From Pseudovibrio brasiliensis (GTDB lineage: Bacteria; Pseudomonadota; Alphaproteobacteria; Rhizobiales; Stappiaceae), in assembly GCF_018282095.1 (NCBI RefSeq), contig NZ_CP074126.1, positions 4,315,841 to 4,379,840 on the forward strand: a stretch of 64,000 bases of DNA, in the 5' to 3' direction. Under the pieces are notes generated by a model. That model saw only the letters and a program-made list of their open reading frames with translations. It had not been told where the DNA came from and searched no databases. Positions within the stretch are counted from its first letter, which is position 1; every line of letters starts with the position of its first letter. Positions 1-39,730 of this stretch are shown in pieces. Position numbers and translations under genes: made by a program.

Positions 1-486
1 CCCCTTAAGCCAACACTTATCATCCCATCCCCAAAACTTATGCCCGCTAAGACCCACACCACATAGCAGCAAACATAGTCAGACCAGATGCGTACATACC
101 TCGTTCGCATCAATAACCCCACCATTCCACCAAACGCTCAAACTAACTCCTCCTCAAGTCCCAACTTCACACCATTCCCAAACCGGAACTCTTTTCCAGC
201 CACTAGCTCACCAGCCCTGAAGTCTTAAGGAGAACATTACAGGAATAGACCACGACCAAAACAAGCTCCATGCTCTAACCATGCAACATCGCAGACGGAC
301 AAGTCCGGGTTCTTTGAAAACTGAAAAACGAAAAGCACCACCTCACCACAAAGCTGGAAGAAGTATGTAATGCAAGCCAGTCTCCCAGACTCTAGTCACG
401 CCAACAAGGGATCATGCATCTAATAGAAGCAGCAAATGACTGTCAGCAGCTAAAACTACGAAAGGAGAAACTACCGAAAGCCAACA
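1..486. other. Non-coding left edge, no gene recognised
   Basis: No open frame here looks like a protein. The plus strand is strikingly poor in G and rich in A and C, unlike the coding DNA to its right. It lies downstream of the minus-strand TetR gene. I see no convincing terminator hairpin, tRNA or repeat. It may be decayed sequence or the 3' flank of a gene outside the window. Confidence 0.4.
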
Positions 487-1110
487 TCATCGCTTATGCA
501 AAAATTGCTCCAACAGGTAACGCCCCTCAAACTGCCAATGCGACAGGCGTCCCGTATGTCCCATAACCAGAAGGCCCATACAGTGAGCAATGGAACCAGC
601 AGTCCATTCCTTTGCTCGCTCACCAAACTCAGCAGCAGCACTGCATTCAATCATATGAACGGTTGCACCGACCTGGCGATTGAGCACAGCATCAAGCTCA
701 CGGCCCAGACCAACCGGCTTGAGGCCGTTGAACAGATATAGGCCAAGCGCAAGGTCATCTGGGCGGCTGTCATAAAAGTCAAAGAAAGCAAGTACTCCGG
801 CAGAGGCAGACCGTGCAGGAGATGCAGCACCCTCGATTGCTTCAGTCACTGCATGATGAAGCTGTTCGAGCGTTTCTTGCAAGACAGCACAATAGAGTTC
901 TTCCTTACCGTGGAAGTAAGGATAGATGGCTCCTGTCGTACAACCTGCAGCGCGGGCGATAGAGCGCATTGACGCTCCATCAAGTCCGTCTTGCGAAAAC
1001 ACGTCGCGGGCTGCTTTGACTATGAGTGAACGGCGCGTTTCACGCAAATGCTCAGCCCGCTTTTGCCGCGCCTCAACTTCTGCATCTTCCTGGTGATTTA
1101 AGTTGGCCAT
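487..1110 (-). CDS. TetR/AcrR family transcriptional regulator
   Basis: A 207-residue one-component repressor. The N-terminal third carries the TetR helix-turn-helix, with the pattern AARDVFSQDGLDGASMRSIARAAGCTT followed by GAIYPYFHGKEEL (about residues 33-72). The rest is a divergent all-helical ligand-binding domain. It starts 11 bp downstream of the crotonase-like gene and must be co-transcribed with it. A perfect 9+1+9 palindrome upstream of that gene (2007-2025) is the likely operator, so the protein probably autoregulates the pair. The ligand is unknown; an acyl-CoA or aromatic acid would suit the neighbour, but this is inference. Confidence 0.88.
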   Translation of the reverse strand: MANLNHQEDAEVEARQKRAEHLRETRRSLIVKAARDVFSQDGLDGASMRSIARAAGCTTGAIYPYFHGKEELYCAVLQETLEQLHHAVTEAIEGAASPARSASAGVLAFFDFYDSRPDDLALGLYLFNGLKPVGLGRELDAVLNRQVGATVHMIECSAAAEFGERAKEWTAGSIAHCMGLLVMGHTGRLSHWQFEGRYLLEQFLHKR

Positions 1111-1121
1111 GATTTCTTACA

Positions 1122-1979
1122 TTATAGAGGAGCATTTATCGGTCTGTTTGCGGTCCAGTCAAAGGTACCTTGATCACGCTCACGAACAGCCTGCTTCCAG
1201 GAGACATCTTCAGCGCGCTTCTTGAAGTTCATCCCTTCCGGGCTATGGCGAGTAATACCATCAAACAGCGTGGCAATCATTTGTGTCTGATAAAGCCCCA
1301 TGGACTCGATCGCCTGATTGATCATGAGTTTTTGCATCATCAACTGATTTACCGGAATACCTGCCATACGCTCTGCCAGTCTTTCAACTTCCGCATTAAG
1401 CTGATCAGCTGGCACGGCTTTGTGAACCAGCCCAATGCGCTCAGCTTCACGGCCATCAATCTTGTCACCCGTCAGCAACATACGCTTCGCACGTTCAGCA
1501 CCAAGCCGGTACACCCACATCGCAGTCGTTGGGCAGCCCCAAACACGCACTGGCATGTAGCCGATGTGAGCATCTTCTGACATCACGATCATATCTGAAC
1601 AAAGAGCAATATCAGAACCACCTGCAACGGCATGGCCATGCACCTTAGCGATAACAGGCCGGTAACTGCGCCATAATGACATGAACAGGTCCGTGTTCTG
1701 CTTCATAAAGGCATAGTCCTTCATCGGATCCCATGGCATTTCTTGTACACCCGGGTTGTTGCCCTCGGTTTCGGCATAGGCCGTCAGATCATAACCTGCA
1801 CAAAACGCCGGGCCGTTTCCTCCCAGCACGACCACATGAACACCATCATCTACGTTGGCTCGTGCCACACAGGCAGCCAACTCATGCGGAATATCCATAT
1901 CAATGGCATTCATCACATCAGGTCGATTTAATGTAATGCGCGCAATCCGACCGTCTTTCTCATAAAGTACCTTTGCCAT
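1122..1979 (-). CDS. Crotonase-superfamily protein (enoyl-CoA hydratase/isomerase-like)
   Basis: This 285-residue protein has the crotonase fold, seen in the oxyanion-hole segment GPAFCAGYDL and in HGHAVAGGSDIAL followed by LLTGDKI. Classical enoyl-CoA hydratases use two glutamates, one after the second glycine-rich segment (GGxxE) and one in a PE pair about 20 residues later. Here those positions are Asp (GGSD) and Val (MPV). A simple hydratase is therefore unlikely; other superfamily reactions (thioester hydrolysis, dehalogenation, isomerisation, C-C cleavage) are possible. The ATG is preceded by the strong ribosome-binding site GGGAGGGG. It is first in an operon with the TetR gene. Confidence 0.85.
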   Translation of the reverse strand: MAKVLYEKDGRIARITLNRPDVMNAIDMDIPHELAACVARANVDDGVHVVVLGGNGPAFCAGYDLTAYAETEGNNPGVQEMPWDPMKDYAFMKQNTDLFMSLWRSYRPVIAKVHGHAVAGGSDIALCSDMIVMSEDAHIGYMPVRVWGCPTTAMWVYRLGAERAKRMLLTGDKIDGREAERIGLVHKAVPADQLNAEVERLAERMAGIPVNQLMMQKLMINQAIESMGLYQTQMIATLFDGITRHSPEGMNFKKRAEDVSWKQAVRERDQGTFDWTANRPINAPL

Positions 1980-2006
1980 AATCCCCTCCCATAACGACTC
2001 AATTAA

Positions 2007-2025
2007 AATATAACAGTGTTATATT
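2007..2025. promoter_or_regulatory. Perfect palindrome, probable TetR operator
   Basis: AATATAACA-G-TGTTATATT is a perfect 9+1+9 inverted repeat about 28 bp upstream of the crotonase ATG. Size, symmetry and position suit a TetR dimer. The best candidate ligand is the TetR protein encoded at the end of the same operon. Confidence 0.7.
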
Positions 2026-2084
2026 GAGAGGAATTGGCCAAAAGAAGAACCTGGCAACACCATCAGTTACCGGGTTGTAAGGAG

Positions 2085-3185
2085 CTAGAGCTTTTCCAGA
2101 TTGGGAAGTGCCATGCGATCAAGGACGAGAAGAGGCGTGATCCACTGATCCGGGCGATTGTAAGCACCGCAAAAAATAGTGACGACAATATCAAGGGCAG
2201 GCACCACAAAAAGTCGCTGACCACCATTCCCAGCACCGGAGATGACAGGAAAAGCGCGATTGGCCGCTGGTACGAAATGCTCCTGCCAATACCAGGAATT
2301 GCTGTAGTGCGAACCAAACGCAGTTCTCACCTGCGGCGCCATGTAAGTCTCAAGCCATTTTTGAGAAACAATCTGTCGCTCATTCCATCGCCCACCAGCA
2401 GCAACCATCTGACCAACGCGGGTCAATCCTTCCGCCGTCAATCTTAGGCCGGAAGCTGGAGAAGGAACCCCATCCGAGCCACGCATCCATTGGAACTGCG
2501 AAATGCCAAGAGGTTCGAACAGCTGCTCTTTGGCAAACACCTCAAGATCCTGCCCCGTTCCCGCAGAAATCAAATGCCCCAACAAAGCGGTACAACCGCC
2601 ATTATAATGCCAACGCACGCCCGGCTGCTCGATGATTGGACGATCCAGAATAAAGCGATATCTATCTGGAGCATTCTCCATCATGATTTCACTGTTGCGT
2701 GGGTCAGAGTACGGCAAATCTTCGTTCCACTCAGTACCCATCGTCATGTTCAGCGCATTGCTGATGGTCCAGGCCGCACGCTGCGGGTCTTTTTTCAGAT
2801 CCGCATAGTCTGGAAAAGCGTCGAGCAAAGGCGCATCGGGTGATGGCACCTTGCCCATCCCCAAAGCAATGCCATAGAGCAAGCTGGTGATGCTCTTGGT
2901 CACAGAGCGCAGATCATGCAGTGTGTCACGCTCAAATTGCACAGTGCCCAGATCATCTGCCCAAGCAAAATCCCGCCCTTCAAAAAAGTGCTCAAACACA
3001 ACCCTGTCGCCATGGGCAATCATCACGCCATGCAAATCAGTCAGCAGCCCCGACTTCACGCCAAGTTCAAGTTTCTCAGAAAGATCATACGCTGTTTGGA
3101 ACTGAGCCTGCACTGCTCCAGCTCCGGCAGCCAAGGTCATGCTTCCAACCGCCATTTTCAGCACACTCCGTCTGTTCAATGTCAT
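2085..3185 (-). CDS. Beta-lactamase-fold serine hydrolase with Tat-type signal
   Basis: A 366-residue serine hydrolase of the class C beta-lactamase / 6-aminohexanoate-dimer hydrolase superfamily. The SxxK nucleophile motif is SVTK at about residues 94-97. A tyrosine motif, YNGG, lies near 205, and a C-terminal GNGGQ segment stands for the third motif. The frame extends to a TTG at 3278, but the ATG at 3185 is preferred because the protein then begins MTLNRRSVLK, which matches a twin-arginine signal followed by a hydrophobic stretch and AQA-like cleavage site. Export to the periplasm is likely. The substrate (ester, amide or peptide) cannot be read from the sequence. It lies between the crotonase and dehalogenase genes on the same strand, about 290 bp after the latter. 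Confidence 0.85.
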   Translation of the reverse strand: MTLNRRSVLKMAVGSMTLAAGAGAVQAQFQTAYDLSEKLELGVKSGLLTDLHGVMIAHGDRVVFEHFFEGRDFAWADDLGTVQFERDTLHDLRSVTKSITSLLYGIALGMGKVPSPDAPLLDAFPDYADLKKDPQRAAWTISNALNMTMGTEWNEDLPYSDPRNSEIMMENAPDRYRFILDRPIIEQPGVRWHYNGGCTALLGHLISAGTGQDLEVFAKEQLFEPLGISQFQWMRGSDGVPSPASGLRLTAEGLTRVGQMVAAGGRWNERQIVSQKWLETYMAPQVRTAFGSHYSNSWYWQEHFVPAANRAFPVISGAGNGGQRLFVVPALDIVVTIFCGAYNRPDQWITPLLVLDRMALPNLEKL

Positions 3186-3475
3186 TCTGACGACCCTATT
3201 CCTGTGCCGAGATATATCCTTGCTCGCAAAACTCGTGAGATGGTTGAAAGAGATCCCGGCAGAAAAGCCAACTAGCAAAATCTAGTAGTATTTATTGTGG
3301 TTCCAAAACGGAAAAATCAAAGATTTTGGAAAGATCATTGAAGGCACACCAACGTGTCACCCTGCGCACAAAACGCAAGATCCAGATTTAAGATAGAAAC
3401 TACTTCCTACTCCATCAAGGAGGAAACAAGCATCCCCGCCCTGAAACCAAAAAGAAAACACTGCGTATTTTTCAC

Positions 3476-6400
3476 CTAAAGCTCAAGCAGAAGCTCTGCG
3501 CCTGCGTCTTTTGCACGGGAGCAGCATAGAACCAGAGTGTCTTCCTTCTCTTTTCCGCTCAGCACAAAGTCACGGTGCTCAACATCTGCACCTTTGTATT
3601 TTGCGGTGCAGACGCCACAAATACCGTCCGAGCACTTGGTTGGAACAGAAATACCCTTCTCATTCAGCACGTCCGCTGCGCTTTTGTCCTCAGGGATCTC
3701 AATGCGCTCACCCGTTGAGGCCAGTTTCACAAAGAAGCTGGTATTCACATAGTCACCCTGATCGGGAACGAAGAAGTATTCCTTGTGCAGGCTCTCTTCC
3801 GCCCAGCCATTGGCAGCAGCCGTATCCAACACCCCATCCATGAAGACATCAGGACCACACGTATAGACATGATAGCCATCCTCATAGTTGGCGAGAATGG
3901 ACTTCAGATCAGCGCGCGTGCCTTCGCTGGAACAATGAATGAAGGCTTTATCTGCCCAAGGTGCGTTTTGGATTTCTTCGATGAAGCCCGCTTTATGGCG
4001 ATGGCGGAAGCAGTAATGCAGCTCAAAAGGTTTGCCAAGCGCATGCAGCCGGTGCGCCATGGCAATCATCGGCGTTACCCCGATACCACCACCAAACAAG
4101 AGCGTCTTCTTGGCATCTTCATGCAGTGGGAAATGGTTGATCGGCTTGGAAATGAAGACACGGCGTCCTTCGTGGAAAATCCGGTGCATCAACGCTGAAC
4201 CGCCGCGCCCTTCTTTTTCTTCCAAAACGCCAATAACATACTTGCTGTTATCTGCCGGATCACCTGCCAGTGAGTATTGGCGCAGGAACTCAGGCGCAAC
4301 AACCACATCGATATGGGCGCCCGCCTCAAATACGGGAAGTGGAGAGCCATCATCCAGCGTAAACTCGTAACGAGACACGCCTTCAGCTTCCGCATTCACT
4401 TTGGATAGGCGCACCGCCAAGACAGGCGAGGAGCTTGCACTCACCTCGTAAACAGGAGCAAGGTCGTTAGACCCGAAAGCGAGGCGAGCCTTGTACTCTT
4501 CCGCAGAAATCATGCTCTGATAGGCTTTGATGCCCGCTTCACGGTCCATCATAAACGGGAACGGCCACGGATGCGGTGCGAGGTTGGCTGGGTATACGGC
4601 GAGGGTCTGGTCTTCGTATTTCAGGTCGAGGTCCAGCTGCAACTCACGCGCGTTGGTCTCCTCCGCAATCACGTAGTTGCCTTCGCCGCTGGCAACCAGA
4701 TCCCACCACCATTTTTTGACCGGATTGATGGAACCATTCCCCAGCTTGTCATCAAGCTTAGCAAGCATCTTGGCCGAAGATGGCATCTTCATAGCCGTCC
4801 AGCGGAATGGGGCTTCGCTGAACAGCCCTTCAAGGTTCCATGGACAGGTTTTCATACAGCGGCCACACAAGGAGCCAGCTGGTTGAGACACGCGGTAGCG
4901 AGCGCACTTCTCGGAGTCTGACTTCCAGATCTCGTAACCGTTGAACATACGCTTCGGTCCGGCAGTGATCGCGCCGGATGGGCACTCGCGGGCGCACTTG
5001 TTACAGCTTTCGCAGAACCGCTGCAGGCCGAAATCGATGGGCTTGTCGTAGGTGAACGGCATATCGGTGGTCACAACGCCGGACTTCAGACGCGGGCCGA
5101 GATATGGGTTCAGAATAACCTCGCCAATGCGGCTCACTTCGCCAAGGCCGGAAAGCAGCAGCAGCGGTGGTTGGAGCACTTCGCCGTCCACAACGGAGTG
5201 ACACCGCGCCGGATAACCAAGACGGCGGATTTGCTCAGCGACGATGCCGCCGATGATGGAGGTGCGCAGATAAGCACGCATAGACTGAGCGCCAGAGATC
5301 CAGTCATCTCCGCTAGCGCCTTCCATCGTCTCATGGCCCTGATCCACCAGAATGGAGATCGCGTTCTTATGATACGGCGTAATCGGCTCGCCGCGCGCAT
5401 CGTGGGAGTAATAGGCGTAGTCCGGGCAGCGGGACAGGCCAACGGCATCCGCGCCGAGGAAATACAACGCTGACTTCACGTTGGCCGCGTTCTTATCCGG
5501 ATCCATCGCGCTCCTTGAGACTTCCGGAGCTGTATCACCATCCTGCAGCAGGATCAGCGCAGCAAGGGCGCGGCGGGCGCAGTATCCCATCGGGTTCTTT
5601 GCCAAATAGCCGCCGTTTTTGGCAGCCTCCTGCAACGTCTTCCCCATATCGCCGAACAGCGCACGGGCAAACATGTCAGTTCGCTTGGGAACACGCGGCA
5701 CGCGCGGCTCATCAATGAAGGTGGTCGTCTCTTCAACCCGCTTGATCCGCTCAAACGGAAACGCCCCCATGTGATAGTCACGGTTTTCATAGGGCTTACG
5801 GTTGAAGGCGTTTTTGAACGTTCTCATACCCAGCTGCCAGGCAGGGCCGTGAGAACTCCAGATATCCGCAAGGTTGCGGGGCGCAAGCGGTTGATCCGGC
5901 GTCAACTCCAACATGGTGGTGATTGCGGCCAGAGTGAACTCGCGGCCAACATACGGATTGGAAACAACCGTCTCACCGTCCTTCTCCACCACCTCAACAA
6001 GACCGGCAGAAACAGCAAGCCGGTTCAGATCCACATCCGCACTGCTGGTGGTGTGCGCACGCGCTTCCACACCCAGCAGGCGCAGATAGTTGGCCAACAC
6101 CACCGCCACTTCTGCCGCCCGAATGGCAGAGCGCTGTTCGCAGGTGCCGGTGATCCAGTCCCCGCCCGGCTCGTCGGCTCTCGGCACCCGTGGATGTTCC
6201 ATCAACACAACAAGTGCAGACCCATGATGTGTCACGGGTCCGGGCGTGGCAGCCGCACTGTCGCGCACATCTGCCATAGTCACATCGATACCGGCAGCAA
6301 GCGTCTTCGGTTGGAATGTCTGCAGGTCTTTCGCAAGCTTATCCAGGTCCGGATTGCGCAATGGCTGATCAAGGAAGTGCTCAGGAACCAGATCACAGGT

Positions 6401-6700
6401 TCCCATCATGGTCGCATCAAAGAAGTAACCCGCGGCCTTCAGGTGATTGGCCCGCTCCTGCGGATCTTCAGGAATTTCAGAGAGCTTGGCATTGTGCGCG
6501 CCGTCACGGATCGCATCCATGATCGCACTGAACGATGCCATCGAGTTGCTTAGGATCTCGGGATTGTCAGCTTGAGAGTAAATCGTTGGCTGCACACGGG
6601 GCACACGCCCCAGATCAACAACCCTATGCGTCCGCTTCAGTCGTTCAGAAGGATACGGCCCAAGATGAACCTTTCTGTTTTTGTATGAAAACAGACGCAT
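3476..6700 (-). CDS. rdhA: Self-sufficient reductive dehalogenase (RdhA fused to FMN/NAD/2Fe-2S reductase)
   Basis: A 1074-residue cytoplasmic enzyme of the catabolic reductive dehalogenase type (BhbA/NpRdhA group), expected to remove halogen from halo-aromatics using cobalamin. Residues about 10-300 and 305-560 are an internal repeat: HLGPYPSERLKR is echoed by YHMGAFPFERIKR, and GGDWITG by GDDWISG. The second copy is the probable cobalamin-binding catalytic unit, with a Tyr-rich CPDYAYYS segment near 425. Two 4Fe-4S motifs follow (CESCNKCARECP and CGRCMKTCP, about 563-625). The C-terminal third is a phthalate-dioxygenase-reductase-like module: RQYSL (flavin, about 808), GGGIGVTPM (NAD, about 873) and a plant-type 2Fe-2S set (C-x4-C-x2-C, about 1022, plus a later Cys). 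There is no Tat signal and no RdhB anchor nearby. The ATG at 6700 follows GGGGGAG; the upstream TTG is rejected. Confidence 0.9.
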   Translation of the reverse strand: MRLFSYKNRKVHLGPYPSERLKRTHRVVDLGRVPRVQPTIYSQADNPEILSNSMASFSAIMDAIRDGAHNAKLSEIPEDPQERANHLKAAGYFFDATMMGTCDLVPEHFLDQPLRNPDLDKLAKDLQTFQPKTLAAGIDVTMADVRDSAAATPGPVTHHGSALVVLMEHPRVPRADEPGGDWITGTCEQRSAIRAAEVAVVLANYLRLLGVEARAHTTSSADVDLNRLAVSAGLVEVVEKDGETVVSNPYVGREFTLAAITTMLELTPDQPLAPRNLADIWSSHGPAWQLGMRTFKNAFNRKPYENRDYHMGAFPFERIKRVEETTTFIDEPRVPRVPKRTDMFARALFGDMGKTLQEAAKNGGYLAKNPMGYCARRALAALILLQDGDTAPEVSRSAMDPDKNAANVKSALYFLGADAVGLSRCPDYAYYSHDARGEPITPYHKNAISILVDQGHETMEGASGDDWISGAQSMRAYLRTSIIGGIVAEQIRRLGYPARCHSVVDGEVLQPPLLLLSGLGEVSRIGEVILNPYLGPRLKSGVVTTDMPFTYDKPIDFGLQRFCESCNKCARECPSGAITAGPKRMFNGYEIWKSDSEKCARYRVSQPAGSLCGRCMKTCPWNLEGLFSEAPFRWTAMKMPSSAKMLAKLDDKLGNGSINPVKKWWWDLVASGEGNYVIAEETNARELQLDLDLKYEDQTLAVYPANLAPHPWPFPFMMDREAGIKAYQSMISAEEYKARLAFGSNDLAPVYEVSASSSPVLAVRLSKVNAEAEGVSRYEFTLDDGSPLPVFEAGAHIDVVVAPEFLRQYSLAGDPADNSKYVIGVLEEKEGRGGSALMHRIFHEGRRVFISKPINHFPLHEDAKKTLLFGGGIGVTPMIAMAHRLHALGKPFELHYCFRHRHKAGFIEEIQNAPWADKAFIHCSSEGTRADLKSILANYEDGYHVYTCGPDVFMDGVLDTAAANGWAEESLHKEYFFVPDQGDYVNTSFFVKLASTGERIEIPEDKSAADVLNEKGISVPTKCSDGICGVCTAKYKGADVEHRDFVLSGKEKEDTLVLCCSRAKDAGAELLLEL

Positions 6701-6764
6701 AATATTCTCCCCCAAACCGGTGTGAGCTTGGCGATGCTCTTTCTCCGGCTTTTTTTAAGCAGCA

Positions 6765-6798
6765 GCAGTAGTACAGCCCTCCCCGACCGGACTACTGC
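6765..6798 (-). other. Stem-loop in the rdhA leader
   Basis: GCAGTAGT and ACTACTGC form a perfect 8-bp stem around an 18-nt loop, 65 to 98 bp upstream of the rdhA ATG. It is not followed by a U-run on the sense strand, so it is not a normal terminator. It could be a leader structure or an operator palindrome. I saw no cobalamin-riboswitch B12-box. Confidence 0.4.
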
Positions 6799-6815
6799 GA
6801 AAATTCAACAATCAA

Positions 6816-6843
6816 CTCATAGGCATTGCTGAGCTCATGTCAA
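6816..6843 (-). promoter_or_regulatory. Candidate sigma70-type promoter for rdhA
   Basis: On the minus strand TTGACA (6843-6838) and TATGAG (6821-6816) are separated by 16 bp. This would give a leader of about 110 nt containing the stem-loop at 6765-6798. The -10 match is imperfect. The rest of 6844-7114 shows no gene; the short plus-strand frames there have no family features. Confidence 0.3.
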
Positions 6844-7114
6844 CAATAAGCGCCTGGATCACGACGACGTGAAAGGAAAGCCGCAGCTAAACGACAATAT
6901 AATTGCCAGCAAAGCGATCACAATTGAGATTTTCACTCAAATCACCTCGCATTTAAGGGGATACTGCCAGTTTCAACCCGGCACTATCCAGTCTCAATCC
7001 CATCTACCGGAACCGGCTAGAGGCACACCAGCAAGCCGTAGAAGCAGCATATGATCACCAAATCCGTTTCAGCCAAATCACAGAAATGCGGAGGACTGCG
7101 CCATCATCCGCACA

Positions 7115-7150
7115 TAAAAAAGAGGCTCAGCATTTTCAGCTGAACCTCTT
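7115..7150 (-). terminator. Rho-independent terminator
   Basis: On the minus strand AAGAGGTTCAGC pairs with GCTGAGCCTCTT (one G-T pair, short loop) and is followed by a T-run. It sits 23 bp after the stop of the small secreted protein gene and separates it from rdhA. Confidence 0.85.
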
Positions 7151-7172
7151 ATGCGATGGAGTTTGCGAGCTT

Positions 7173-7556
7173 TTACTTGATCTCAATCTCATAGGTATTT
7201 CCGCCGGAGATCACGCGACCTGACGTGTACATCCGAAACTTCGTCACCACTTTATCTGTGCCGCGAAAGTCCTTGTCCGGCGAGTAGTACATGATCAAAT
7301 CATTCGTCACCTTACCCGCGCACTTACCTGCAGAGCTTGGCAGAGCAGAACGAGATTGCACAAAGCGCACAACACCATGCTCCGGCTTTTTGACGAAAGA
7401 GACCTTGGGCAGCGCTGCGGAGCCGCAGGTTTCTGGAACGTAATAGCTATAAACGTTGAGTTTTGCGGTGCGATTGGCTGCAACCTGCTTCCGGATGATC
7501 TCTGCATTTACACTGAATGAGAACATCACAAACACGAAGACTAAAAAATACTTCAT
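7173..7556 (-). CDS. Small secreted Ig-/cadherin-like protein
   Basis: A 127-residue protein starting with a clear signal peptide (MKYFLVFVFVMFSFSVNA). The ATG at 7556 is chosen over the upstream start because it places this peptide at the N-terminus and has GGGAG before it. The mature part is beta-rich. It contains a YSPDKDFRGTDKV segment that resembles the conserved turn of bacterial tandem Ig/cadherin-like domains (YxPxxDFxGxD). Two cysteines could form a disulfide. It is a single domain, monocistronic, and ended by a strong terminator. The role is unknown; a periplasmic binding or surface protein is plausible. Confidence 0.75.
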   Translation of the reverse strand: MKYFLVFVFVMFSFSVNAEIIRKQVAANRTAKLNVYSYYVPETCGSAALPKVSFVKKPEHGVVRFVQSRSALPSSAGKCAGKVTNDLIMYYSPDKDFRGTDKVVTKFRMYTSGRVISGGNTYEIEIK

Positions 7557-7781
7557 CGCAATTCTCCCAAAATTTAAATCAAAATTATATAAACTAGAGA
7601 ATCGACAAAGCACAATAAAACATATGTAATATTCATATTGAGCACACAGATAGATCTATTCTTTAATTTCAAGCATCTCCTTTACGTCAGGTTCCATTTT
7701 AGCAAAACAACACAAGCTAATATTTAGAATACGAAATCTAGTTCTACATCGAATTCTTATAAATCATTGATTGTGCAAGGC

Positions 7782-8318
7782 TCATGCAGATATTCGCAGC
7801 ACTTGAGTGACCAGTTCATCTCGCGTAAGCCGTCCATCCAACCGCAAAGCTGGCTTGCCGCAGCTTTTCATCCACGCCTCATGCCGATGCCGGCTTCTGC
7901 CATTAAAATCAGGATTTTCGTATTGTGATGCCCATTTAAAGAAGGCCTCATGGATCTCAAACATGTCCCCTCCTTCCAGAATGCGGTCTCCAAAACGCTC
8001 CTGCTCTCGCTTCTTCAGGCGTTCCAACCGCAACTCTTGCGGCAAGCTGAGAAAAACAATCAGGGTCGCATCCGCTATAAAATCTCTGGCCCAGTTCTCG
8101 CAAGCACCAGTCAACACCCAGCTTCCGTCTCCCAGAACTGGCGCCATAAGCTTCACCCGCTCTTCCTCAGACCGCTTAATGGAAAACGGAGGATCTGTTT
8201 GCTCCCAGAAGTAATCGTCTGAATCTGCATGAGGAATGGAAAGAGCTTGTGACAAGCCACACCCAAGCGTGGTTGACCCGGAACAGGAAGCCCCGAAAAC
8301 ATAAATTCGATTGTGCAT
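7782..8318 (-). CDS. P-loop nucleotide-binding protein (adenylate/shikimate kinase-like)
   Basis: A 178-residue P-loop protein. The Walker A-like loop at the N-terminus is GASCSGSTT, with Ser where the Lys of GxxxxGKS normally sits. This variant is common in a family of small AAA/adenylate-kinase-like proteins of unknown substrate. A DSDDYFW segment after the second strand and a basic lid (ERLKKREQERFGDR) follow, as in nucleotide and sugar kinases. It begins only 24 bp after the end of the decayed LuxR gene on the same strand, so it may be co-transcribed with the LuxR cluster. The substrate is unknown. Confidence 0.75.
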   Translation of the reverse strand: MHNRIYVFGASCSGSTTLGCGLSQALSIPHADSDDYFWEQTDPPFSIKRSEEERVKLMAPVLGDGSWVLTGACENWARDFIADATLIVFLSLPQELRLERLKKREQERFGDRILEGGDMFEIHEAFFKWASQYENPDFNGRSRHRHEAWMKSCGKPALRLDGRLTRDELVTQVLRISA

Positions 8319-8342
8319 CGCTAAAACCTTTTGGAAAGGAAA

Positions 8343-9477
8343 TCAGGAAGGAAACCGTGCGGCAAGGTCACTGGCAAACCGAACAAGCTCACTTTACGAG
8401 ACAAAGCCAACCTTCTCGGTTATTCGTGCCAGATGATTACGCGCAGTGTTATAACTAATCTGCATTTTGTCAGCTGTCTCGCGCATTGACAGCCCACTCA
8501 CAAGACATTGCACCAACTCAGCTTCTCGCGGTGAAATGCTCAGATAGCTCTGCAGCATCTGAACGTCTGCCACCGGAAGATCTGCCGGATCGATGAGAAT
8601 GCAAAGGACAGGCTGAAACTCACTGAGGAAGCAATCAAGATAAGACTGTGTCACCATCAAAGTTTCAAGCGGAACAGCAGCAAAAATCATTGAGGCTCGC
8701 TCTTCACTCTGAAGCACACAAGGAATCTGAGGCATCTGTATTGCACGCGCCATGTGAACAGAACGCTCAATATGCGCACGATGAGAACGACACTTGCTCA
8801 AAAGGGAGACACTTCGGTCAACAAACAACCTCTCTCCTTTACGCAGCACAGCTTCTCCCCGCTGGTTTGCAAGCGCAACATGCAGGCCATGGTCCAACAC
8901 GAAAGCAGCACTCGGTATACGCTCCAGCCAAAACAAATGATCATCACACTCAAACCGCCGCTGCTCCAGCTCCAACCCAAGGGCAAAAGCGGACTGAAAG
9001 CTCGGCTTGATAAACTCCAATATCGCGCAAAGCTCATCATCCTCCTGCCCCACAAACCTCTCTGGCATGGTCGCTGCGATGACGGCACCATCTGTGCCTT
9101 TCCGGTGCAGGATAATGCCACGTAAACGATCACACTTGTTCTGTCTGGAAAGAACACGCTCATAGAATTCAGAGCGCTTGACCTGATCAGGACTGATGAA
9201 CCGCTCGCTGTAAATCACTTCATCAAAAGCAGCAGCATCCATGAGAGCTGGAAACGGGTTCACACTTACCCCATCCCGCATGTCCTGCTCAAAGCCATCA
9301 TCGCAATTCCAAAAAGCAAGATGATGCGTTTTCAGTTTGCGAAAGCACTGGGCCTGCACGCCAAACAACACCTCCGGATACTTATGCGCCATCGGCTCAA
9401 GCGCACTGAAGATAGCCTCTCCAAGAGGTCGCACAGGCATACATGTGTTTCACAAGGGTATCTTGCAGCTTCTGCAA
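8343..9477 (-). pseudogene. Decayed LuxR-type regulator (frameshift plus premature stop)
   Basis: The open part (9440-8394, 348 codons) is a paralogue of the two LuxR-type regulators upstream, with a DNA-binding segment ETADKMQISYNTARNHLARI. Compared with them it is broken at both ends. From a TTG at 9477 (preceded by GGAG) another frame reads MQKLQDTLVKHMYA, matching MQGVHDEMVRKLYA of the third paralogue; one extra base then shifts it out of frame near 9427-9438. At the other end a TAA at 8394-8396 replaces the CAA of the paralogues' SQSELVRLASDL, and the frame continues after the stop as SELVRFASDLAARFPS to a TGA at 8343. The last helix of the HTH domain is lost, so function is doubtful. 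Confidence 0.75.
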
Positions 9478-9527
9478 CGGACTTCTCCAGAAGATGCTGG
9501 CAGATCAGCGACAACGAAATAGTCAGC

Positions 9528-10658
9528 CTAGCGAGGCACTCTCGCTGAAAGGTCACTGGCCAACCGCACCAGCTCACTTTGCGAGCCTAAGGACACCCGG
9601 TCGGTAATACGGGCCAGATGGTTACGCGCGGTGTTGTAGCTGATCTGCATTTTGTCGGCTGTTTCACGAACCGACAAACCAACCACAAGGTTCTGGATCA
9701 ACTCCGCTTCTCGTTTAGAAACATCCATACACTCCTGCAGATAAGTCACGGGTGCAACAGATAAACTGGACGGATCGATGACAATTGCAAGCACCGCCTC
9801 ATCCGCAGGAACAAAGCAATCAAGATAAGCAGGTGAGCGCTCCAGCACCCGAATGGGTGTCATCGCAAAAAGCGCGCCCGGCATAAACTCTCCGTGCAAG
9901 GCCAAAGGCCCGACAGGTCTCTTATTTAGCCGAACATTTGCCGCCGTATCTTCCAGCAATTTACGTTGGTTATGAGAGCGGGCGGAAAGCTCACCACGGC
10001 AATCCACGTCTATCAAATCTGAGGAGCGAAACATGCGTTCAGCTTCAGCATTGGCAACCGAAACATGTAAGCCACGATCAAGGACCATCGCCGCACTGGG
10101 AATACGCTCAAGCCAATGCGCTCCAAGATAAGCCTTCTGCTCTCGCTGCCTCAGCTCAAGTGCCAGAGAGAATGCACGCTGAAAATGAGGCCGAATGCGC
10201 TCCAATGTATCGCAAAGAAACAGATCCTCTTTGCCAACAAAATCATCCGGCATTGTAAATGCGACAATCGCTGCATCCCCGTCCTTCCGATGCATCAGAA
10301 AGCCACGGGAGCGATCAAACGTGTTTCGCTTGCCCAAAACTCGCTCATAAAACTCTGAGCGTTTGACCATTTCCGGTGCGATATAGCGCTCGCTGTAAAG
10401 AACGGACTGAAACGGGATAATCGCAGCCAATGGCGGAAACGGATTGCAGCCCCCAGCTTCATCCATGTCTTGCGCCATCCCTTCCTCAGCATTTTGAAAG
10501 GACATATAATAGTAGTCATTGTTCAGATAACACTGCACCTGAACACCAAACAAAACATCACGATTAGCAGCAGCAAGACCTTCAAAAACCTGCCCAAGAT
10601 CCTGCCCCAGTATCACACTGGAATACATTCTCCCAATCAGGTCTTCAGCAACGCTCAT
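9528..10658 (-). CDS. LuxR-type HTH transcriptional regulator (paralogue 2)
   Basis: A 376-residue regulator. The C-terminus is a complete LuxR/FixJ-type HTH (SKREAELIQNLVVGLSVRE, then ISYNTARNHLARI and a final SELVRLASDL helix). The middle (about 175-260) has a PAS-like segment, LERIPSAAMVLDRGLHVSVANA. The N-terminal 170 residues are a sensor domain of unrecognised type, not the classical acyl-homoserine-lactone-binding domain. It lies 8 bp after paralogue 3 and about 50 bp before the decayed paralogue 1, so the three form one minus-strand operon. Ligand and targets are unknown. Confidence 0.85.
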   Translation of the reverse strand: MSVAEDLIGRMYSSVILGQDLGQVFEGLAAANRDVLFGVQVQCYLNNDYYYMSFQNAEEGMAQDMDEAGGCNPFPPLAAIIPFQSVLYSERYIAPEMVKRSEFYERVLGKRNTFDRSRGFLMHRKDGDAAIVAFTMPDDFVGKEDLFLCDTLERIRPHFQRAFSLALELRQREQKAYLGAHWLERIPSAAMVLDRGLHVSVANAEAERMFRSSDLIDVDCRGELSARSHNQRKLLEDTAANVRLNKRPVGPLALHGEFMPGALFAMTPIRVLERSPAYLDCFVPADEAVLAIVIDPSSLSVAPVTYLQECMDVSKREAELIQNLVVGLSVRETADKMQISYNTARNHLARITDRVSLGSQSELVRLASDLSARVPR

Positions 10659-10666
10659 CTCACCCT

Positions 10667-11800
10667 CTATCGCGGCACTCTCGCTGCCAGATCACTCGCA
10701 AGACGCACCAACTCACTTTGTGAGTTCACGGAAACCTTGTCGGCAATGCGTGCCATATGATTGCGAGCAGTGTTGTAGCTGATATCCAGCGCATGCGAGG
10801 TCTCACCCATGGAAGCGCCCCGGACCAGATGCTGCAGCAACTCCGCCTCACGCTTTGAGATACCAAAGTAATGCTGGAGGTTCTCCAGCTCTGCCAGTGG
10901 TCGATCGCCCGGATCCATAATCATGCAAAGCAATGGCTGCAACCCGCGTACAAATGGAGCAAGATAGGCGGGCGTTTCAGCCAACACATCGATAGGCATC
11001 ACTACAAAGAATGGATTAGGTGCCGCCTCCCCTTCCAAGACCAAAGGCCCCAACGGCTTGCTCGTCACCCGGCATTTGGTAACCGCATCCTCAAACAACT
11101 TGCGATGCCCGTTGTGGCGGGAGGAAACCTCCCCCCGTCGATCAATGAAAAAGCTTTCGTTACTGCCAAAGAACACCTCAGCCTGCTTGTTCGCAAAGGC
11201 AACATGCATACCCTGATCCAGAATAAACGCAGCGCTCGGAATACGATCCAACCAGAACGTATAAGCATCCGTCAGCCCCCGCCGCTGCTCCAAATGCAAC
11301 GCCACCGAAAACGCACTTTGGAAATGGGGCCGTACCGTATCAAGGGTCTTATCTAGCTGTACGGCATCAGAACCGTCAAAGTCAGACTGCACGGCAACTG
11401 AAACCATGGCCGTATCCATACCATTGCGATGAAGTAGAAAGGCTCGAACACGGTCAAACGTGCCGTAGTCGCTGAACACAAGATCAAAGAAATCCGTATC
11501 ACGGATTTCATCCGGACTGATGAAATCCTCAGTATGGATCAGACCATTCATAGGCGCAAACTTGGCAAAGCGCGGAAGTGGGTTGCTCTGCCCAGCGGCA
11601 ATCATTTTTGCCGCCATGTCCTCCTGCGTGTTGTGGAAGGCCATGTGATGATACTGGAGCGAATTGAGAGAAACGATCTTGTAGCAAAGCATGGTTTCGC
11701 GAAAAGAGGATGCCATTGGTGCAAAAGCCTCCCCAATATCCTCTCCAAGAGCGATATTGGCGTAGAGCTTCCTCACCATCTCATCATGCACACCCTGCAT
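10667..11800 (-). CDS. LuxR-type HTH transcriptional regulator (paralogue 3)
   Basis: A 377-residue protein, first gene of the three-member LuxR-type operon. It has the same plan as its neighbours: an N-terminal sensor region, a PAS-like segment (LDRIPSAAFILDQGMHVAFAN) and an intact C-terminal HTH ending in SQSELVRLASDLAARVPR. Length and start agree with paralogue 2. The ATG at 11800 has GGGTGGG upstream. The promoter must lie in 11801-12023, which also holds a perfect 7+1+7 palindrome. Tandem duplication and divergence is the simplest origin of the cluster. Confidence 0.85.
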   Translation of the reverse strand: MQGVHDEMVRKLYANIALGEDIGEAFAPMASSFRETMLCYKIVSLNSLQYHHMAFHNTQEDMAAKMIAAGQSNPLPRFAKFAPMNGLIHTEDFISPDEIRDTDFFDLVFSDYGTFDRVRAFLLHRNGMDTAMVSVAVQSDFDGSDAVQLDKTLDTVRPHFQSAFSVALHLEQRRGLTDAYTFWLDRIPSAAFILDQGMHVAFANKQAEVFFGSNESFFIDRRGEVSSRHNGHRKLFEDAVTKCRVTSKPLGPLVLEGEAAPNPFFVVMPIDVLAETPAYLAPFVRGLQPLLCMIMDPGDRPLAELENLQHYFGISKREAELLQHLVRGASMGETSHALDISYNTARNHMARIADKVSVNSQSELVRLASDLAARVPR

Positions 11801-11960
11801 CAGCCCACCCGAATCGAATAAACACCCCTTCTATCTCTACGTAAATTAAATAGTAAAAATTCCAGATAGCAACAAATTGAGATAATATTTTCTTCCAGCT
11901 CCGATGAGAAAGACAATTCACACCGATAACTCTCGAGGAATACCCCTGAAAAAACTCAGA

Positions 11961-11975
11961 TATTCATGATGAATA
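11961..11975. promoter_or_regulatory. Perfect 15-bp palindrome upstream of the LuxR cluster
   Basis: TATTCAT-G-ATGAATA is a perfect 7+1+7 inverted repeat about 160 bp upstream of the first LuxR-type gene and 50 bp downstream of the histidine kinase stop. It may be the binding site of the cluster's own products or of the adjacent response regulator. No direct evidence exists for either. Confidence 0.4.
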
Positions 11976-12023
11976 CAGACAAATACGTACCCTACCTAGC
12001 GAACAACTTCTGCTCATCATCAC

Positions 12024-13340
12024 TTAAGGCTTGCGCGTCTCTTTCAACACCAGTCGCGTCACAATCGCATTGTCCCGCTCTTCCAGAGTGAACTCCCATC
12101 CCATCCTGCGGGCAATGCGCTCACACAGGGAAAGCCCAAAACCAAAGCTCTCTTCATAGATCGAGGCAGCTCCTTCTTTCTTGCCGGTGGCAACCGGGTT
12201 TTCGATCAGGAACACACCATCACGATAGCTGATCGTGATCTCACCTTTCTGGGCATGCTGGAACGCATTTCGGATCAGGTTGCCAAACAGAATAAGCAGC
12301 GGTGCCTTCGGAAGCTCAGCTTCATCCTCACTCAGGTCCAAATGCTCCGTCAGCGGCTTGTTGCCTTTCAGATAATCCAGCTCCTCAATGCAACCCATAA
12401 TCAGCTTGGCGGGTACAAGCTTCTCTACCCGCGGCGGTGCGGAGCTCTCCCGCCCCAACCACAACAGCGTCTCAACAATGATCCGCATGTTGAGGTTCGC
12501 CCGCTGAATGCGCTCCACCGGCACCGCATCCTCCGGATCACTCTCCCGGCTCTTCAGCAGCGAGATGTTGCCTGCAATCACCGTGATCGGCGTCCGCAGC
12601 TCATGGCTCGCATAGCGCAGGAACGTCTGCTCCCGCTCCACAAACTCCGAAATCCGCGCCACAGTGCGGGAGAGCTTCACGGCAAGATTATTCAGCTCCC
12701 GATACCGAAAGTCCGGCGGTGTCTCACCCACATTTTCGTTATCCAGAGACTGCGCCCAGTTTTCGAGCGCTGCAATTGGCTTGATCAGGCGCTTGGAAAG
12801 AATGCGGGCACACACAAAGGTCGCCAGCAGGTTGATGAAACCAACAATCGCGAAAGCTATGATGACGACCTGATCCTCTTCAGAGCCTTCAACATACTCC
12901 TCCGTGCTCTCAAGCGTGATGTAGAGATTCCGCCCATCTTCAAGCGGATAGATGTAGAGATAGAGGTAATACGTCGACTTGCAGTTGCCCTCCGCATCAC
13001 ACTCCTGATCCTCCTCACTGAAATACAGCTCCAGCGGCTCCAGCGTTTCATCTGCAAAGTGCCGCGCCATATCCGGCGGCAACGTCTCCAGCGAAAATGC
13101 GCTTCGGATCAGATAGGTCTCGGGCAGCGGCGCATTCGGGTCAACCTGTGCAGCCTCCTCATAGGACCGCCCCAGATCATCCATCATGTAAATGAGGCTC
13201 TCATCAGAGCCTGCGATAAAGAAGATCGGCAGCAAGAACGTATAGAGCAACAGCAGCAGGATAACGCTGATGAAGAACGTGATGCCAAGTTCACGAAAGA
13301 TGCTGCGACCGCGCACCCCAACGGCTGCCTTACTCGCCAT
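12024..13340 (-). CDS. Sensor histidine kinase
   Basis: A 438-residue membrane kinase. A first membrane helix (FFISVILLLLLYTFLLPIFF) is followed by a roughly 120-residue acidic periplasmic domain rich in Glu and Asp. A second helix (VIIAFAIVGFINLLATFVCA) leads into a HAMP linker. The phosphoacceptor box is YASHELRTPITVIAGN, and the ATPase N-box is NLIRNAFQHAQ. The ATPase lid region is short, with FGFGLSLCERIARRMGW as the late G-box. The ATG at 13340, overlapping the regulator's stop by 11 bp with GGGAG in front, is preferred over one 36 bp upstream. Translational coupling with the response regulator is likely. The acidic sensor domain suggests a cation or cationic-peptide signal, which is inference. 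Confidence 0.9.
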   Translation of the reverse strand: MASKAAVGVRGRSIFRELGITFFISVILLLLLYTFLLPIFFIAGSDESLIYMMDDLGRSYEEAAQVDPNAPLPETYLIRSAFSLETLPPDMARHFADETLEPLELYFSEEDQECDAEGNCKSTYYLYLYIYPLEDGRNLYITLESTEEYVEGSEEDQVVIIAFAIVGFINLLATFVCARILSKRLIKPIAALENWAQSLDNENVGETPPDFRYRELNNLAVKLSRTVARISEFVEREQTFLRYASHELRTPITVIAGNISLLKSRESDPEDAVPVERIQRANLNMRIIVETLLWLGRESSAPPRVEKLVPAKLIMGCIEELDYLKGNKPLTEHLDLSEDEAELPKAPLLILFGNLIRNAFQHAQKGEITISYRDGVFLIENPVATGKKEGAASIYEESFGFGLSLCERIARRMGWEFTLEERDNAIVTRLVLKETRKP

Positions 13341-14034
13341 CCACTTTCTCCCGAAGACTGTATCCCCCATTGGCATCGCGATAGATCACTTCAACCTCAT
13401 CGGGTTGCTGAAGTTGTTGGCGGAGCTTGTAAAGATGCACATTCAGGCTGTTGCTTTCCGGCGGTTCATCCCCCCACAACGCCCGTTCCAACTGCTCCCG
13501 TCTCACGGAGGCCGGACTGTGCTTGACTAAAACGCTCAGGATCTTCCAGGCCGCCGGCGACAGGCGCAAGACCCGATCCCCACGCTTGGCGATGTTGCGT
13601 GCAAAGTCCACCTGCAGATCAGCAAGCTCAAACAGCTTCGACTGTGCACTCCGCCGTCCCGACAAAGCCCGTATCCGCACCACAAGCTCCTCAAAGGCGA
13701 AAGGCTTGACCAGATAGTCATCGGTCCCGGCCTCAAACCCGGCCAGCTTGTCGGAAAGCTCATCTCGCGCTGTCAGCATCAGCACCGGCCGGTCAATCCC
13801 CTCACTCCGCAAGGTCTCGCAAACGGTCAGTCCATCCATCTTCGGCAGCGTCAGATCAAGGATGATGACGTCGAAGTACCCTTCCCGCGCAAACTCCAGT
13901 CCCGCCTCACCGTTATAAGCGTGATCGCAGCTGATGCCGTGCATCTTCAGCACATCAGAAATCGTGCCCGCCAGATCCAGATCATCTTCAATCAGAAGCG
14001 CTAGCAAGTTCTCTTTTTCGGTTTGTGCCATCAT
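13330..14034 (-). CDS. OmpR-family response regulator
   Basis: A 234-residue two-domain regulator. The receiver domain (1-125) has the acidic pocket EDD near residue 16, the phosphoacceptor Asp at about residue 60 (VIILDLTLPKMDG), TA at the switch Thr and the conserved Lys in LVKPFAF. The C-terminal winged helix (about 140-228) shows the OmpR/PhoB pattern SLNVHLYKLRQQL with a terminal YRDANGGYSL hairpin. It is the first gene of an operon with the histidine kinase, read leftward, and is divergent from osmC-like DNA across about 210 bp. Confidence 0.93.
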   Translation of the reverse strand: MMAQTEKENLLALLIEDDLDLAGTISDVLKMHGISCDHAYNGEAGLEFAREGYFDVIILDLTLPKMDGLTVCETLRSEGIDRPVLMLTARDELSDKLAGFEAGTDDYLVKPFAFEELVVRIRALSGRRSAQSKLFELADLQVDFARNIAKRGDRVLRLSPAAWKILSVLVKHSPASVRREQLERALWGDEPPESNSLNVHLYKLRQQLQQPDEVEVIYRDANGGYSLREKVDGE

Positions 14035-33314: not shown

Positions 33315-34538
33315 TTAGCCGCCGAAGTCGTCCAGCATGATGTCTTCACGTTCCACGCCCAGATCAAGCAGCATGTTGATCACGGACTGGTTCATGATCG
33401 GAGGACCACACATGTAGTACTCGCAGTCTTCTGGCGCAGCATGGTCCTTCAGGTACTCGTTGTAGAGTACGTTGTGAATGAACCCGGTGTAACCGTCCCA
33501 GTCATCATCTGGCTGCGGATCAGAAAGTGCCACATGCCATGTGAAGTTCGGGAACTCTTTCGCCAGCTGATCGAAGTCCTCAACGAAGAACATCTCTTTC
33601 TTGGAACGCGCACCATACCAGAAAGTGATCTTACGATCGCGGTTCTCAAGACGCTTCAGCTGATCGAAGATGTGCGAACGCATAGGCGCCATACCAGCAC
33701 CACCACCGATGAACACCATTTCCTTGTTGGTTTCGCGAGCAAAGAACTCACCAAACGGACCGGAGATGGTCACCTTGTCACCTGGCTTCAGGTTGAAGAT
33801 GAACGAAGACATCTTACCAGCCGGAATGCCTGTGGTGCCAGGAGGTGGGGAAGCTACACGAACGTTCAGCATGATCATGCCTTTTTCGTCCGGGTAGTTC
33901 GCCATGGAATAAGCACGCTCAACTGGCTCGTCCACGATGGACTCATACTGCCACAGATTGAACTTGTCCCAATCTTCGCGATACTGCTCTTCAATGTCGA
34001 AGTCGGTGTACTTCAGCTTGTGCGCAGGCGCTTCAATCTGAATGTAACCACCAGCACGGAAGTTCACGTCTTCGCCTTCTGGCAGGTCCAGAACCAGCGC
34101 CTTAATGAAGGTCGCAACGTTTTCGTTGGAGCGAACAGTACACTCCCACTTTTTCACGCCGAACACTTCTTCAGGCACTTCAATCTTCATGTCCTGCTTC
34201 ACAGCAACCTGACAGGAAAGACGGTCACCACAGCGTGCTTCACGCTTGGTGATGTGGCTTTCCTCAGTTGCCAGAATGGAACCACCACCCTCGTGCACTT
34301 TCACGCGGCACTGAGCACAGGTACCACCGCCACCACAGGCGGAAGGAACGAAGATCTTCTGATCAGCCAGAACGTTGAGCAGCTTACCGCCCGCAGGAAC
34401 GGAAACAGTGCGCTCACCGTTGATTTCGATGTTAACGTCGCCAGAAGCAACCAGCTTGCTGCGCGCCATGAGAATGACGATCACCAGCGCAAGCACGATC
34501 AAAGTGAATAGCGTAATGCCCCAGGTAAAGTCTTGCAT
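33315..34538 (-). CDS. nqrF: Na+-translocating NADH:quinone reductase subunit F
   Basis: A 407-residue subunit that takes electrons from NADH into the complex. An N-terminal membrane helix ([18 protein letters not shown]) is followed by a plant-type 2Fe-2S domain ([10 protein letters not shown] plus a later Cys near 110). Then come an FAD domain with RAYSMANYP and an NADH domain with [13 protein letters not shown], ending MLDDFGG as is usual. It is the last gene of nqrABCDEF and is followed by a strong terminator. Confidence 0.96.
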
Positions 34539-34551
34539 CTGCTCGTCTCCC

Positions 34552-35160
34552 TTACAGCTTCACGCCTGAGAAAGCCATGAAACCCATAGCCATCAGACCA
34601 GCGGTGATGAAGGTGATGCCAAGACCCTGCAGTCCATCAGGAACGTCAGAGTACTTCAGCTTTTCACGTACACCAGCCATTGCAGTAATCGCGAGCGCCC
34701 AACCAATACCGGAAGCAACACCGTAAACGGAGGACTCTGCCAGGTTGTAGTCACGCTCCACCATGAACAGAGAACCACCCATGATGGCGCAGTTCACAGT
34801 GATCAGCGGTAGGAAGATACCCAGCGCGTTGTACAGCGCAGGAACATAGCGATCGAGGAACATTTCAAGGATCTGCACCACAGCAGCGATAACGCCGATG
34901 TAAGAGATCAGACCCAGGAAGCGCAGGTCAGTACCTTCAAGACCAGCCCACTCCAGCGCACCTTCGTTCAGCAGCGTGGTGTAGAGCAGGTTGTTGATTG
35001 GCACAGTCAGAGCCTGCACAACAACAACAGAGATACCCAGACCCAGCGCAGTTTCAACCTTCTTGGAAACCGCAAGGAACGTACACATTCCAAGGAAGAA
35101 GGAGAGCGCAAGGTTTTCGATAAAGATCGCCTTTACGGCGAGGGAAAGAAGCCCTTCCAT
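34552..35160 (-). CDS. nqrE: Na+-translocating NADH:quinone reductase subunit E
   Basis: A 202-residue membrane subunit with six helices, homologous to NqrD and to Rnf subunits. [20 protein letters not shown] near the N-terminus contains the Cys that contributes to the intramembrane iron site in this family. A second conserved Cys lies in [13 protein letters not shown]. It is 13 bp upstream of nqrF and 2 bp after nqrD. Confidence 0.95.
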
Positions 35161-35162
35161 AA

Positions 35163-35818
<656 letters not shown>

Positions 35819-35819
<1 letters not shown>

Positions 35820-37841: not shown

Positions 37842-37844
37842 GGG

Positions 37845-39197: not shown

Positions 39198-39360
39198 CCC
39201 TTACCCTGTCAGGCTTCTTATAGGGCAAACCACTAGATGTTCACGGGATATCTACGGGTAAGTGATGCTAAGTCATTCTGCTACGTACAAAATGCCGCGC
39301 ACGCGGATTATTGACTTTGGCAAGTCGAACCGAGATAAATCCCCCCACAGATCGCATTTT
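39198..39360. other. nqrA-side part of the divergent nqrA/apbE region
   Basis: No gene. It holds a small inverted repeat, GACTT-TGGC-AAGTC (39313-39326), and must contain the nqr promoter on the minus strand. On the minus strand 39340-39376 reads GGGCTTTGTTGCTGAAAATG, which is loosely like the ends of IS5-group insertion sequences (GGCTTTGTTG type). No transposase is present, so an IS relic is only a possibility. Confidence 0.35.
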
Positions 39361-39477: not shown

Positions 39478-39730
39478 CAATACCCTGATATACCGCAAAT
39501 TTCAATAGGGATTCGTGATATTGACGCAACGGCAATAAGGGTGTTTCGCGAAAATTTTATCTCAAATAAGTTTTCCCCGAACTTTTCACATGCACGTAGT
39601 ACCACCTACGACTTTCTTCATCTTCAACTAATGCTGATCTTGGTCGCGGCAGTAACCTCCCCCTATTTAACTTGACAGAAAACCAGAATAAGCCGATTAC
39701 GCGGGGAAATGAAAAAACTCTGAGGCCGAA

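What the first reader, a model, noticed from the sequence alone, without database searches (positions are those of the whole stretch)
3476..6700. Self-sufficient reductive dehalogenase with internal duplication of its cobalamin-domain half
One chain combines two RdhA-like repeats, two 4Fe-4S clusters, and a full FMN/NAD/2Fe-2S reductase. The first repeat retains the HLGPYPSERLKR and GGDWITG landmarks but no iron-sulfur motif, so it looks like a degenerate copy. No membrane anchor (RdhB), Tat signal or maturation genes are nearby, so the enzyme should work in the cytoplasm on NAD(P)H alone. This is consistent with catabolic dehalogenases of aerobic marine bacteria.
Basis: partly seen in the sequence, partly recalled or inferred. 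Interest (0 to 1): 0.8.

Follow-up and report, generated by a model that had tools for sequence, protein, structure and literature searches.

The report
Self-sufficient catabolic reductive dehalogenase, Pseudovibrio
A marine bacterium that looks like a Pseudovibrio carries a vitamin-B12 enzyme that probably strips bromine or iodine from phenol-like compounds using NADPH; the enzyme, including its duplicated and partly disused half, belongs to an already described group, so the finding is real but ordinary.

The parts
3476..6700 (-). rdhA, self-sufficient catabolic reductive dehalogenase, 1074 aa plus stop
   Evidence: ORF and translation; NCBIfam RDH TIGR02486 197.7 bits, cut-off 160.35; 50.5% identity to BhbA over 1-1074
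5831..6700 (-). repeat 1 (residues 1-290): catalytically dead copy of the cobalamin-core fold
   Evidence: aligns with repeat 2; of 84 rows, the positions equivalent to S473, M474, Y477 and K539 hold that residue in 1, 0, 0 and 0
6230..6379 (-). 50-aa insert in repeat 1 (residues 108-157), absent from NpRdhA
   Evidence: gap against 4ras; 50 aa in 83 of 83 other self-sufficient rows, 49 in BhbA; skipped in 9 of 9 NpRdhA-like rows
5036..5788 (-). repeat 2 (residues 305-555): working cobalamin core with S473, M474, Y477, K539
   Evidence: NpRdhA 4ras alignment, offset 51; these residues in 84 of 84 rows
4706..5035 (-). two 4Fe-4S cluster domain (residues 556-665), includes R603
   Evidence: C563/566/569/573 and C599/612/615/619 in 84 of 84 rows
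4421..4705 (-). linker (residues 666-760), partly homologous to the NpRdhA C-terminus
   Evidence: 4ras alignment to residue 740
3746..4420 (-). FMN- and NAD(P)H-binding reductase part (residues 761-985)
   Evidence: 2pia phthalate dioxygenase reductase over 766-1073, E 8.6e-57; FMN inferred from homology
3479..3745 (-). 2Fe-2S ferredoxin part (residues 986-1074), C1023, C1028, C1031, C1059
   Evidence: Pfam Fer2, E 4e-09; cysteines in 84 of 84 rows

Best explanation
It is a cytoplasmic, self-sufficient catabolic RdhA of the BhbA/JtRdhA subfamily. Inferred electron path: NADPH to FMN, to 2Fe-2S, to the two 4Fe-4S clusters, to cobalamin in repeat 2. There the reduced cobalt takes an ortho-bromine or -iodine from a phenolic ring, with Y477 as proton donor and K539, R603 and S473 binding the phenol. 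The dehalogenated phenol then presumably enters ordinary aromatic catabolism. Repeat 1 is an old copy of the cobalamin core that has lost catalytic residues. It probably takes the place of the second monomer at the dimer-like interface and carries a 50-aa insert that may cap the active site or dock the reductase. Shown here: domain order, homology, residue conservation, grouping of repeat 1 units in one clade, purifying selection, CobN in the host. Inferred from characterised homologues: cofactors, electron path, substrate class, role of repeat 1.
For: Full-length co-linear match to BhbA, WP_015585978 on pBHB. NpRdhA 4ras, E 1.7e-159. TIGR02486 above cut-off. 2pia, E 8.6e-57. S473, M474, Y477, K539, R603 and the twelve cluster cysteines in 84 of 84 aligned rows and in BhbA. 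Full-length orthologues in 12 of 16 genomes of the genus, own included. No Tat-like RRxFxK in the N-terminus MRLFSYKNRK. CobN 1603.3 bits, cut-off 822.05. Published biochemistry of JtRdhA (PMC10463259) and of the NpRdhA active site (PMC7565698, passages).
Against: No structure model could be made. The genes next to it (TetR, enoyl-CoA hydratase, serine hydrolase) do not point to halophenol use. The MarR-like neighbour found in 12 of 80 relatives' loci was not among the neighbours examined here. Residue 470, equivalent to NpRdhA's pocket residue A419, is Gly here and Val in 58 of 84 rows, so the substrate range may differ from that of relatives.
Confidence: 0.93

Rival explanations
1. A respiratory, membrane-tethered RdhA using organohalide as terminal electron acceptor.
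For: Member of the same superfamily (TIGR02486; 4uqu PceA, E 2.8e-26). A review says of BhbA that it is associated with the cell membrane (PMC5316534, passage).
Against: Fused NAD(P)H-type reductase; no Tat motif; no plausible small multi-TM anchor gene in window 1-14000: the one ORF found (84 aa, two predicted TM, 2063-2317) lies in another frame over the serine hydrolase gene. RdhB was not searched genome-wide.
Confidence: 0.02
2. An enzyme with two working cobalamin sites, one in each repeat.
For: Of 104 repeat-2 positions at least 97% conserved, 92 align with repeat 1 and 39 have the same residue there in this protein, among them G179, W182, H216, G233, G252.
Against: The positions equivalent to S473, M474, Y477 and K539 hold that residue in 1, 0, 0 and 0 of 84 rows; R603 and the clusters lie outside the repeat. 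[quoted passage not shown]
Confidence: 0.02
3. An RdhA-type enzyme whose main job is not halophenol dehalogenation (another C-X substrate or another reduction).
For: Genomic context is uninformative; pocket residue G470 is unusual (13 of 84 rows).
Against: The phenol-binding and proton-transfer residues S, Y, K and R of NpRdhA are present in 84 of 84 rows. PMC10463259 states that all catabolic RdhAs characterised to date are specific for ortho-halogenated phenols.
Confidence: 0.06

Closest known systems
BhbA, Comamonas sp. 7D-2, WP_015585978 (plasmid pBHB, NC_021077)
   Same: Full domain order, 50.5% identity over 1-1074, catalytic and cluster residues, an insert of similar length
   Different: On an IncP plasmid near protocatechuate 4,5-dioxygenase genes; this one lies on a 4.8-Mb contig beside TetR and enoyl-CoA hydratase genes
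JtRdhA, Jhaorihella thermophila (PMC10463259)
   Same: Self-sufficient RdhA with duplicated cobalamin domain, 2x[4Fe-4S] and PDOR module, as described in the paper
   Different: Sequence not compared directly here; no biochemistry exists for the window protein
Pseudovibrio sp. FO-BEG1 RdhA WP_014287181 and Tun.PSC04-5.I4 RdhA WP_093185424
   Same: Same genus; already in the published RdhA tree
   Different: Their sequences were not in hand, so their domain group and identity to the window protein were not computed
NpRdhA, Nitratireductor pacificus (PDB 4ras, 6zxu)
   Same: Both repeats and clusters; catalytic residues
   Different: Lacks the reductase module and the 50-aa insert in repeat 1

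Membership tests
Self-sufficient catabolic RdhA (BhbA/JtRdhA type) | Reductive dehalogenase family profile | tested here: met
   TIGR02486 197.7 bits, cut-off 160.35
Self-sufficient catabolic RdhA (BhbA/JtRdhA type) | Duplicated cobalamin-core domain, first copy vestigial | tested here: met
   Halves align E 1e-22; catalytic residues lost in repeat 1; absence of bound cobalamin not testable here
Self-sufficient catabolic RdhA (BhbA/JtRdhA type) | Two 4Fe-4S motifs and catalytic Y, K, R | tested here: met
   84 of 84 rows
Self-sufficient catabolic RdhA (BhbA/JtRdhA type) | C-terminal PDOR-type reductase | tested here: met
   2pia over 766-1073, E 8.6e-57
Self-sufficient catabolic RdhA (BhbA/JtRdhA type) | No Tat signal | tested here: met
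   N-terminus MRLFSYKNRKVHLGPYP, read by eye against RRXFXK as given in PMC13101508 (passage); no signal-peptide program was run
Self-sufficient catabolic RdhA (BhbA/JtRdhA type) | NADPH-dependent dehalogenation of ortho-halophenols | not testable with these tools
   Needs purified enzyme
Respiratory RdhA | Tat signal and RdhB anchor | tested here: not met
   an anchor was looked for only in window 1-14000, by hydropathy
Epoxyqueuosine reductase QueG | QueG equivalog score | tested here: not met
   24.9 bits against cut-off 200; host has its own QueG at 445.5 bits

The most novel reading that the evidence does not exclude
The first repeat is not a leftover: in the reductase-fused lineage it has been rebuilt into a lid or docking platform. 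Its insert at 108-157, 50 aa long in 83 of 83 other self-sufficient rows (49 in BhbA) and skipped in 9 of 9 NpRdhA-like relatives whose frames hold no such reductase, would gate the active site and receive the 2Fe-2S domain, so a dead enzyme copy would have become the electron-delivery adaptor of the living one.
Probability: 0.3. Interest if true: 0.4.

Novelty: already known. Interest (0 to 1): 0.17.

Why it matters
It adds one more well-supported member to a subfamily of interest for bromophenol turnover in the sea and for bioremediation, and shows that full-length copies occur in 12 of 16 Pseudovibrio-group genomes examined. The repeat tree gives a modest added point: one old duplication probably underlies both the fused and the reductase-less catabolic enzymes, and the dead copy stays under selection.

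Tried and rejected
Respiratory RdhA, QueG, two working cobalamin sites and a decaying pseudogene were considered and rejected. An independent duplication within the self-sufficient lineage was rejected (p-AU 1.5e-6), with the caveat that the groups were tested after the tree had been seen. Whether the duplicated enzymes arose from, or gave rise to, single-core ones could not be resolved: the second repeats form one group only at support 79/58, and holding the duplicated units together apart from the single-core ones is not rejected, p-AU 0.458. The tree program flagged L124_1_NP_r1 as a long branch and L129_0_NP_r1 for odd composition. Neighbourhood analysis gave no substrate clue: the most frequent neighbour cluster within 6 kb in 80 loci was a MarR-like gene in 12 (the name is my reading of the sequence, no family search was run on it). 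The idea that the insert is more conserved than the rest of repeat 1 failed: mean identity to the query 0.506, against 0.508 for residues 158-285 and 0.67 for 1-24. dN/dS: for the two repeats the pairs with L026, L028 and L030 are usable (dS 0.28-1.16); L031 (dS 2.5 and 4.6) is saturated, and L032 (dS 1.6 and 1.3) gives 0.137 for repeat 1 and 0.047 for repeat 2, the same direction.

Rows dropped: the family alignment of 84 rows is the query, the 80 loci that the search for related loci kept of 489 confirmed, and L013, L018, L021. Left out were 13 loci that were the query itself or looked like second fetches of these, and loci that did not cover the whole protein, such as L002 and L022-L025. 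These rows are the nearest relatives, so '84 of 84' does not describe the whole superfamily. For the tree 12 of the 84 rows were used, plus 9 NpRdhA-like, 5 single-core and 5 distant proteins. RdhB was not searched genome-wide. JtRdhA and FO-BEG1 sequences were not fetched.

Full report
WHAT IS THERE. The ORF at 3476-6700 on the minus strand encodes 1074 aa from an ATG at 6700. NCBIfam's reductive dehalogenase model scores 197.7 bits against a cut-off of 160.35. The cysteines I assign to the 4Fe-4S clusters are 563, 566, 569, 573, 599, 612, 615 and 619, and those assigned to the 2Fe-2S cluster are 1023, 1028, 1031 and 1059.

THE DUPLICATION. Residues 1-300 against 301-665 give BLASTP E 1e-22 (26% identity over 291 columns). 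Against 301-560 the Smith-Waterman score is 212; 1000 shuffles have mean 33, sd 4.9, maximum 60. Profiles of 44 first repeats and 12 second repeats match at probability 99.7, E 1.8e-25. So the duplication is real.

WHICH COPY WORKS. Numbering from NpRdhA by the gap-free part of the alignment (offset 51), the published active-site residues S422, M423, Y426, K488 and R552 (PMC7565698, passages read) are S473, M474, Y477, K539 and R603. Each is present in 84 of 84 aligned rows and in BhbA. The equivalent places in repeat 1 are E188, Q189, A192 and, depending on gap placement, T256 or L257. Across the 84 rows they hold the catalytic letter in 1 (S, in L021), 0 (M), 0 (Y) and 0 (K, at either place). 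R603 and the clusters lie outside the repeat. Of 104 positions of repeat 2 that are at least 97% conserved, 92 align with repeat 1 and 39 have the same residue there in this protein; that is a result on the side of a kept fold. Mean identity of 72 non-Pseudovibrio rows to the query is 0.50 in repeat 1 and 0.69 in repeat 2. dN/dS for the pairs with usable dS (L026, L028, L030) is 0.045-0.053 in repeat 1 and 0.018-0.022 in repeat 2. Repeat 1 is thus freer to vary, but far from neutral.

AGE OF THE DUPLICATION. In a tree of 52 core units, all 21 first repeats (12 self-sufficient, 9 NpRdhA-like) form one group with support 100/100. Holding the self-sufficient first and second repeats together is rejected, p-AU 1.5e-6 (groups named after the tree was seen). 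One old duplication shared by the fused and the reductase-less enzymes is the simplest reading. The second repeats group together only weakly (79/58). Five single-core RdhAs without an obvious Tat signal fall near the second repeats; whether they are ancestral or secondary losses is unresolved (p-AU 0.458).

THE INSERT. Against NpRdhA the protein has about 40-50 extra residues between 107 and 158. The segment 108-157 is 50 aa long in 83 of 83 other self-sufficient rows, 49 aa in BhbA with little sequence similarity, and skipped in 9 of 9 NpRdhA-like proteins. Of those nine, seven have frames of 695-742 aa, one ends at 579 aa soon after its clusters, and one runs into an AMP-binding domain. PMC10463259 mentions an insert specific to RdhA-PDOR fusions that folds over the active site in a model. 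That the two are the same is my inference; the passages read give no residue numbers. The insert is no more conserved than the rest of repeat 1.

CLOSEST KNOWN. BhbA, the enzyme of the bromoxynil pathway, is WP_015585978 in PMC10463259. The plasmid search finds this protein on pBHB at 50.5% identity over 1-1074, near protocatechuate 4,5-dioxygenase genes. It is one of 8 plasmid records, of 136 with any match at E up to 1e-50, that cover at least 80% of the query. [quoted passage not shown] Its subject, JtRdhA, as purified held 0.4 cobalamin, 0.53 FMN and 9.4 irons per protein, uses NADPH on bromo- and iodophenols, and is only inhibited by the chlorinated compounds tested. Other papers seen: PMC13101508 (first of seven parts; passages), PMC7565698 (passages), PMC5316534 (passages).

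HOST AND SURROUNDINGS. The nearest named relative is Pseudovibrio denitrificans JCM 12308 at 98% (records very near the window's own may be left out there). In the genus 12 of 16 genomes (own included) have the full-length gene; in the rest of the family 4 of 21 examined do. The own genome shows no second RdhA match with this protein at E up to 0.001: the other five matches lie in the reductase part, though that search also did not pick up QueG, so its reach is limited. It has CobN and a separate QueG. Downstream on the same strand lie a serine hydrolase (2085-3278), an enoyl-CoA hydratase (1122-1979) and a TetR gene (487-1110); upstream come a gene without a Pfam match, a gene with a sub-threshold AAA_18 match, three LuxR-type genes and a two-component pair. 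Near rdhA, enoyl-CoA hydratase is kept at 93-97% identity in 7 of the 10 loci whose record names Pseudovibrio, TetR in 6 and the serine hydrolase in 2; of the three without the hydratase, two (L034, L036) end within about 170 bases after rdhA. This context does not reveal the substrate.

PUBLICATION CHECK. Searches for Pseudovibrio with reductive dehalogenase and with dehalogenase and genome gave 4 papers each; going by the listings and the passages read, I found none that characterises the Pseudovibrio enzyme. Searches were the other literature searches.

VERDICT. Observation confirmed, interpretation supported, novelty absent.

Noticed in passing
In relatives G352 and G356 matches to the two parts lie next to each other as separate matches. 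This may be a gene fusion that hands the product to CoA activation, or a local sequence error.
   Followed up: partly
L107, L108, L109, L110, L113 (surroundings L140-L144): Single-core RdhAs of about 440-460 aa (L110 in a longer frame) without an evident Tat signal sit close to the working repeat of catabolic RdhAs in the tree. They may be the form before the duplication or forms that lost it. A Tat-less catabolic RDase whose first cluster motif lies at 283-294, so presumably also single-core, is in print (Ros_A3X954, PMC13101508); whether it belongs with these was not tested.
   Followed up: partly
window 5291-5293 (residue 470): The pocket position equivalent to NpRdhA A419 is Gly in all 12 Pseudovibrio rows of the alignment and in L039, but Val in 58 of 84 rows, which could alter substrate range in this genus.
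   Followed up: no
window 8394-11800: Three consecutive genes of 348, 376 and 377 aa with a LuxR-type GerE domain, in tandem upstream of rdhA; copy number appears to differ between Pseudovibrio loci.
   Followed up: no
window 33315-40759: A set of genes with Pfam domains of the Na+-translocating NADH:quinone reductase (Nqr) at 33315-39197 and an ApbE gene at 39731-40759 on the other strand.
   Followed up: no
L106, about 7000-12000 (outside the window, just before its start): A stretch of about 5 kb just before the window reads as N in the held genome; in several relatives the contig ends 2-3 kb after rdhA. An rRNA operon would fit, but this was not tested.
   Followed up: no
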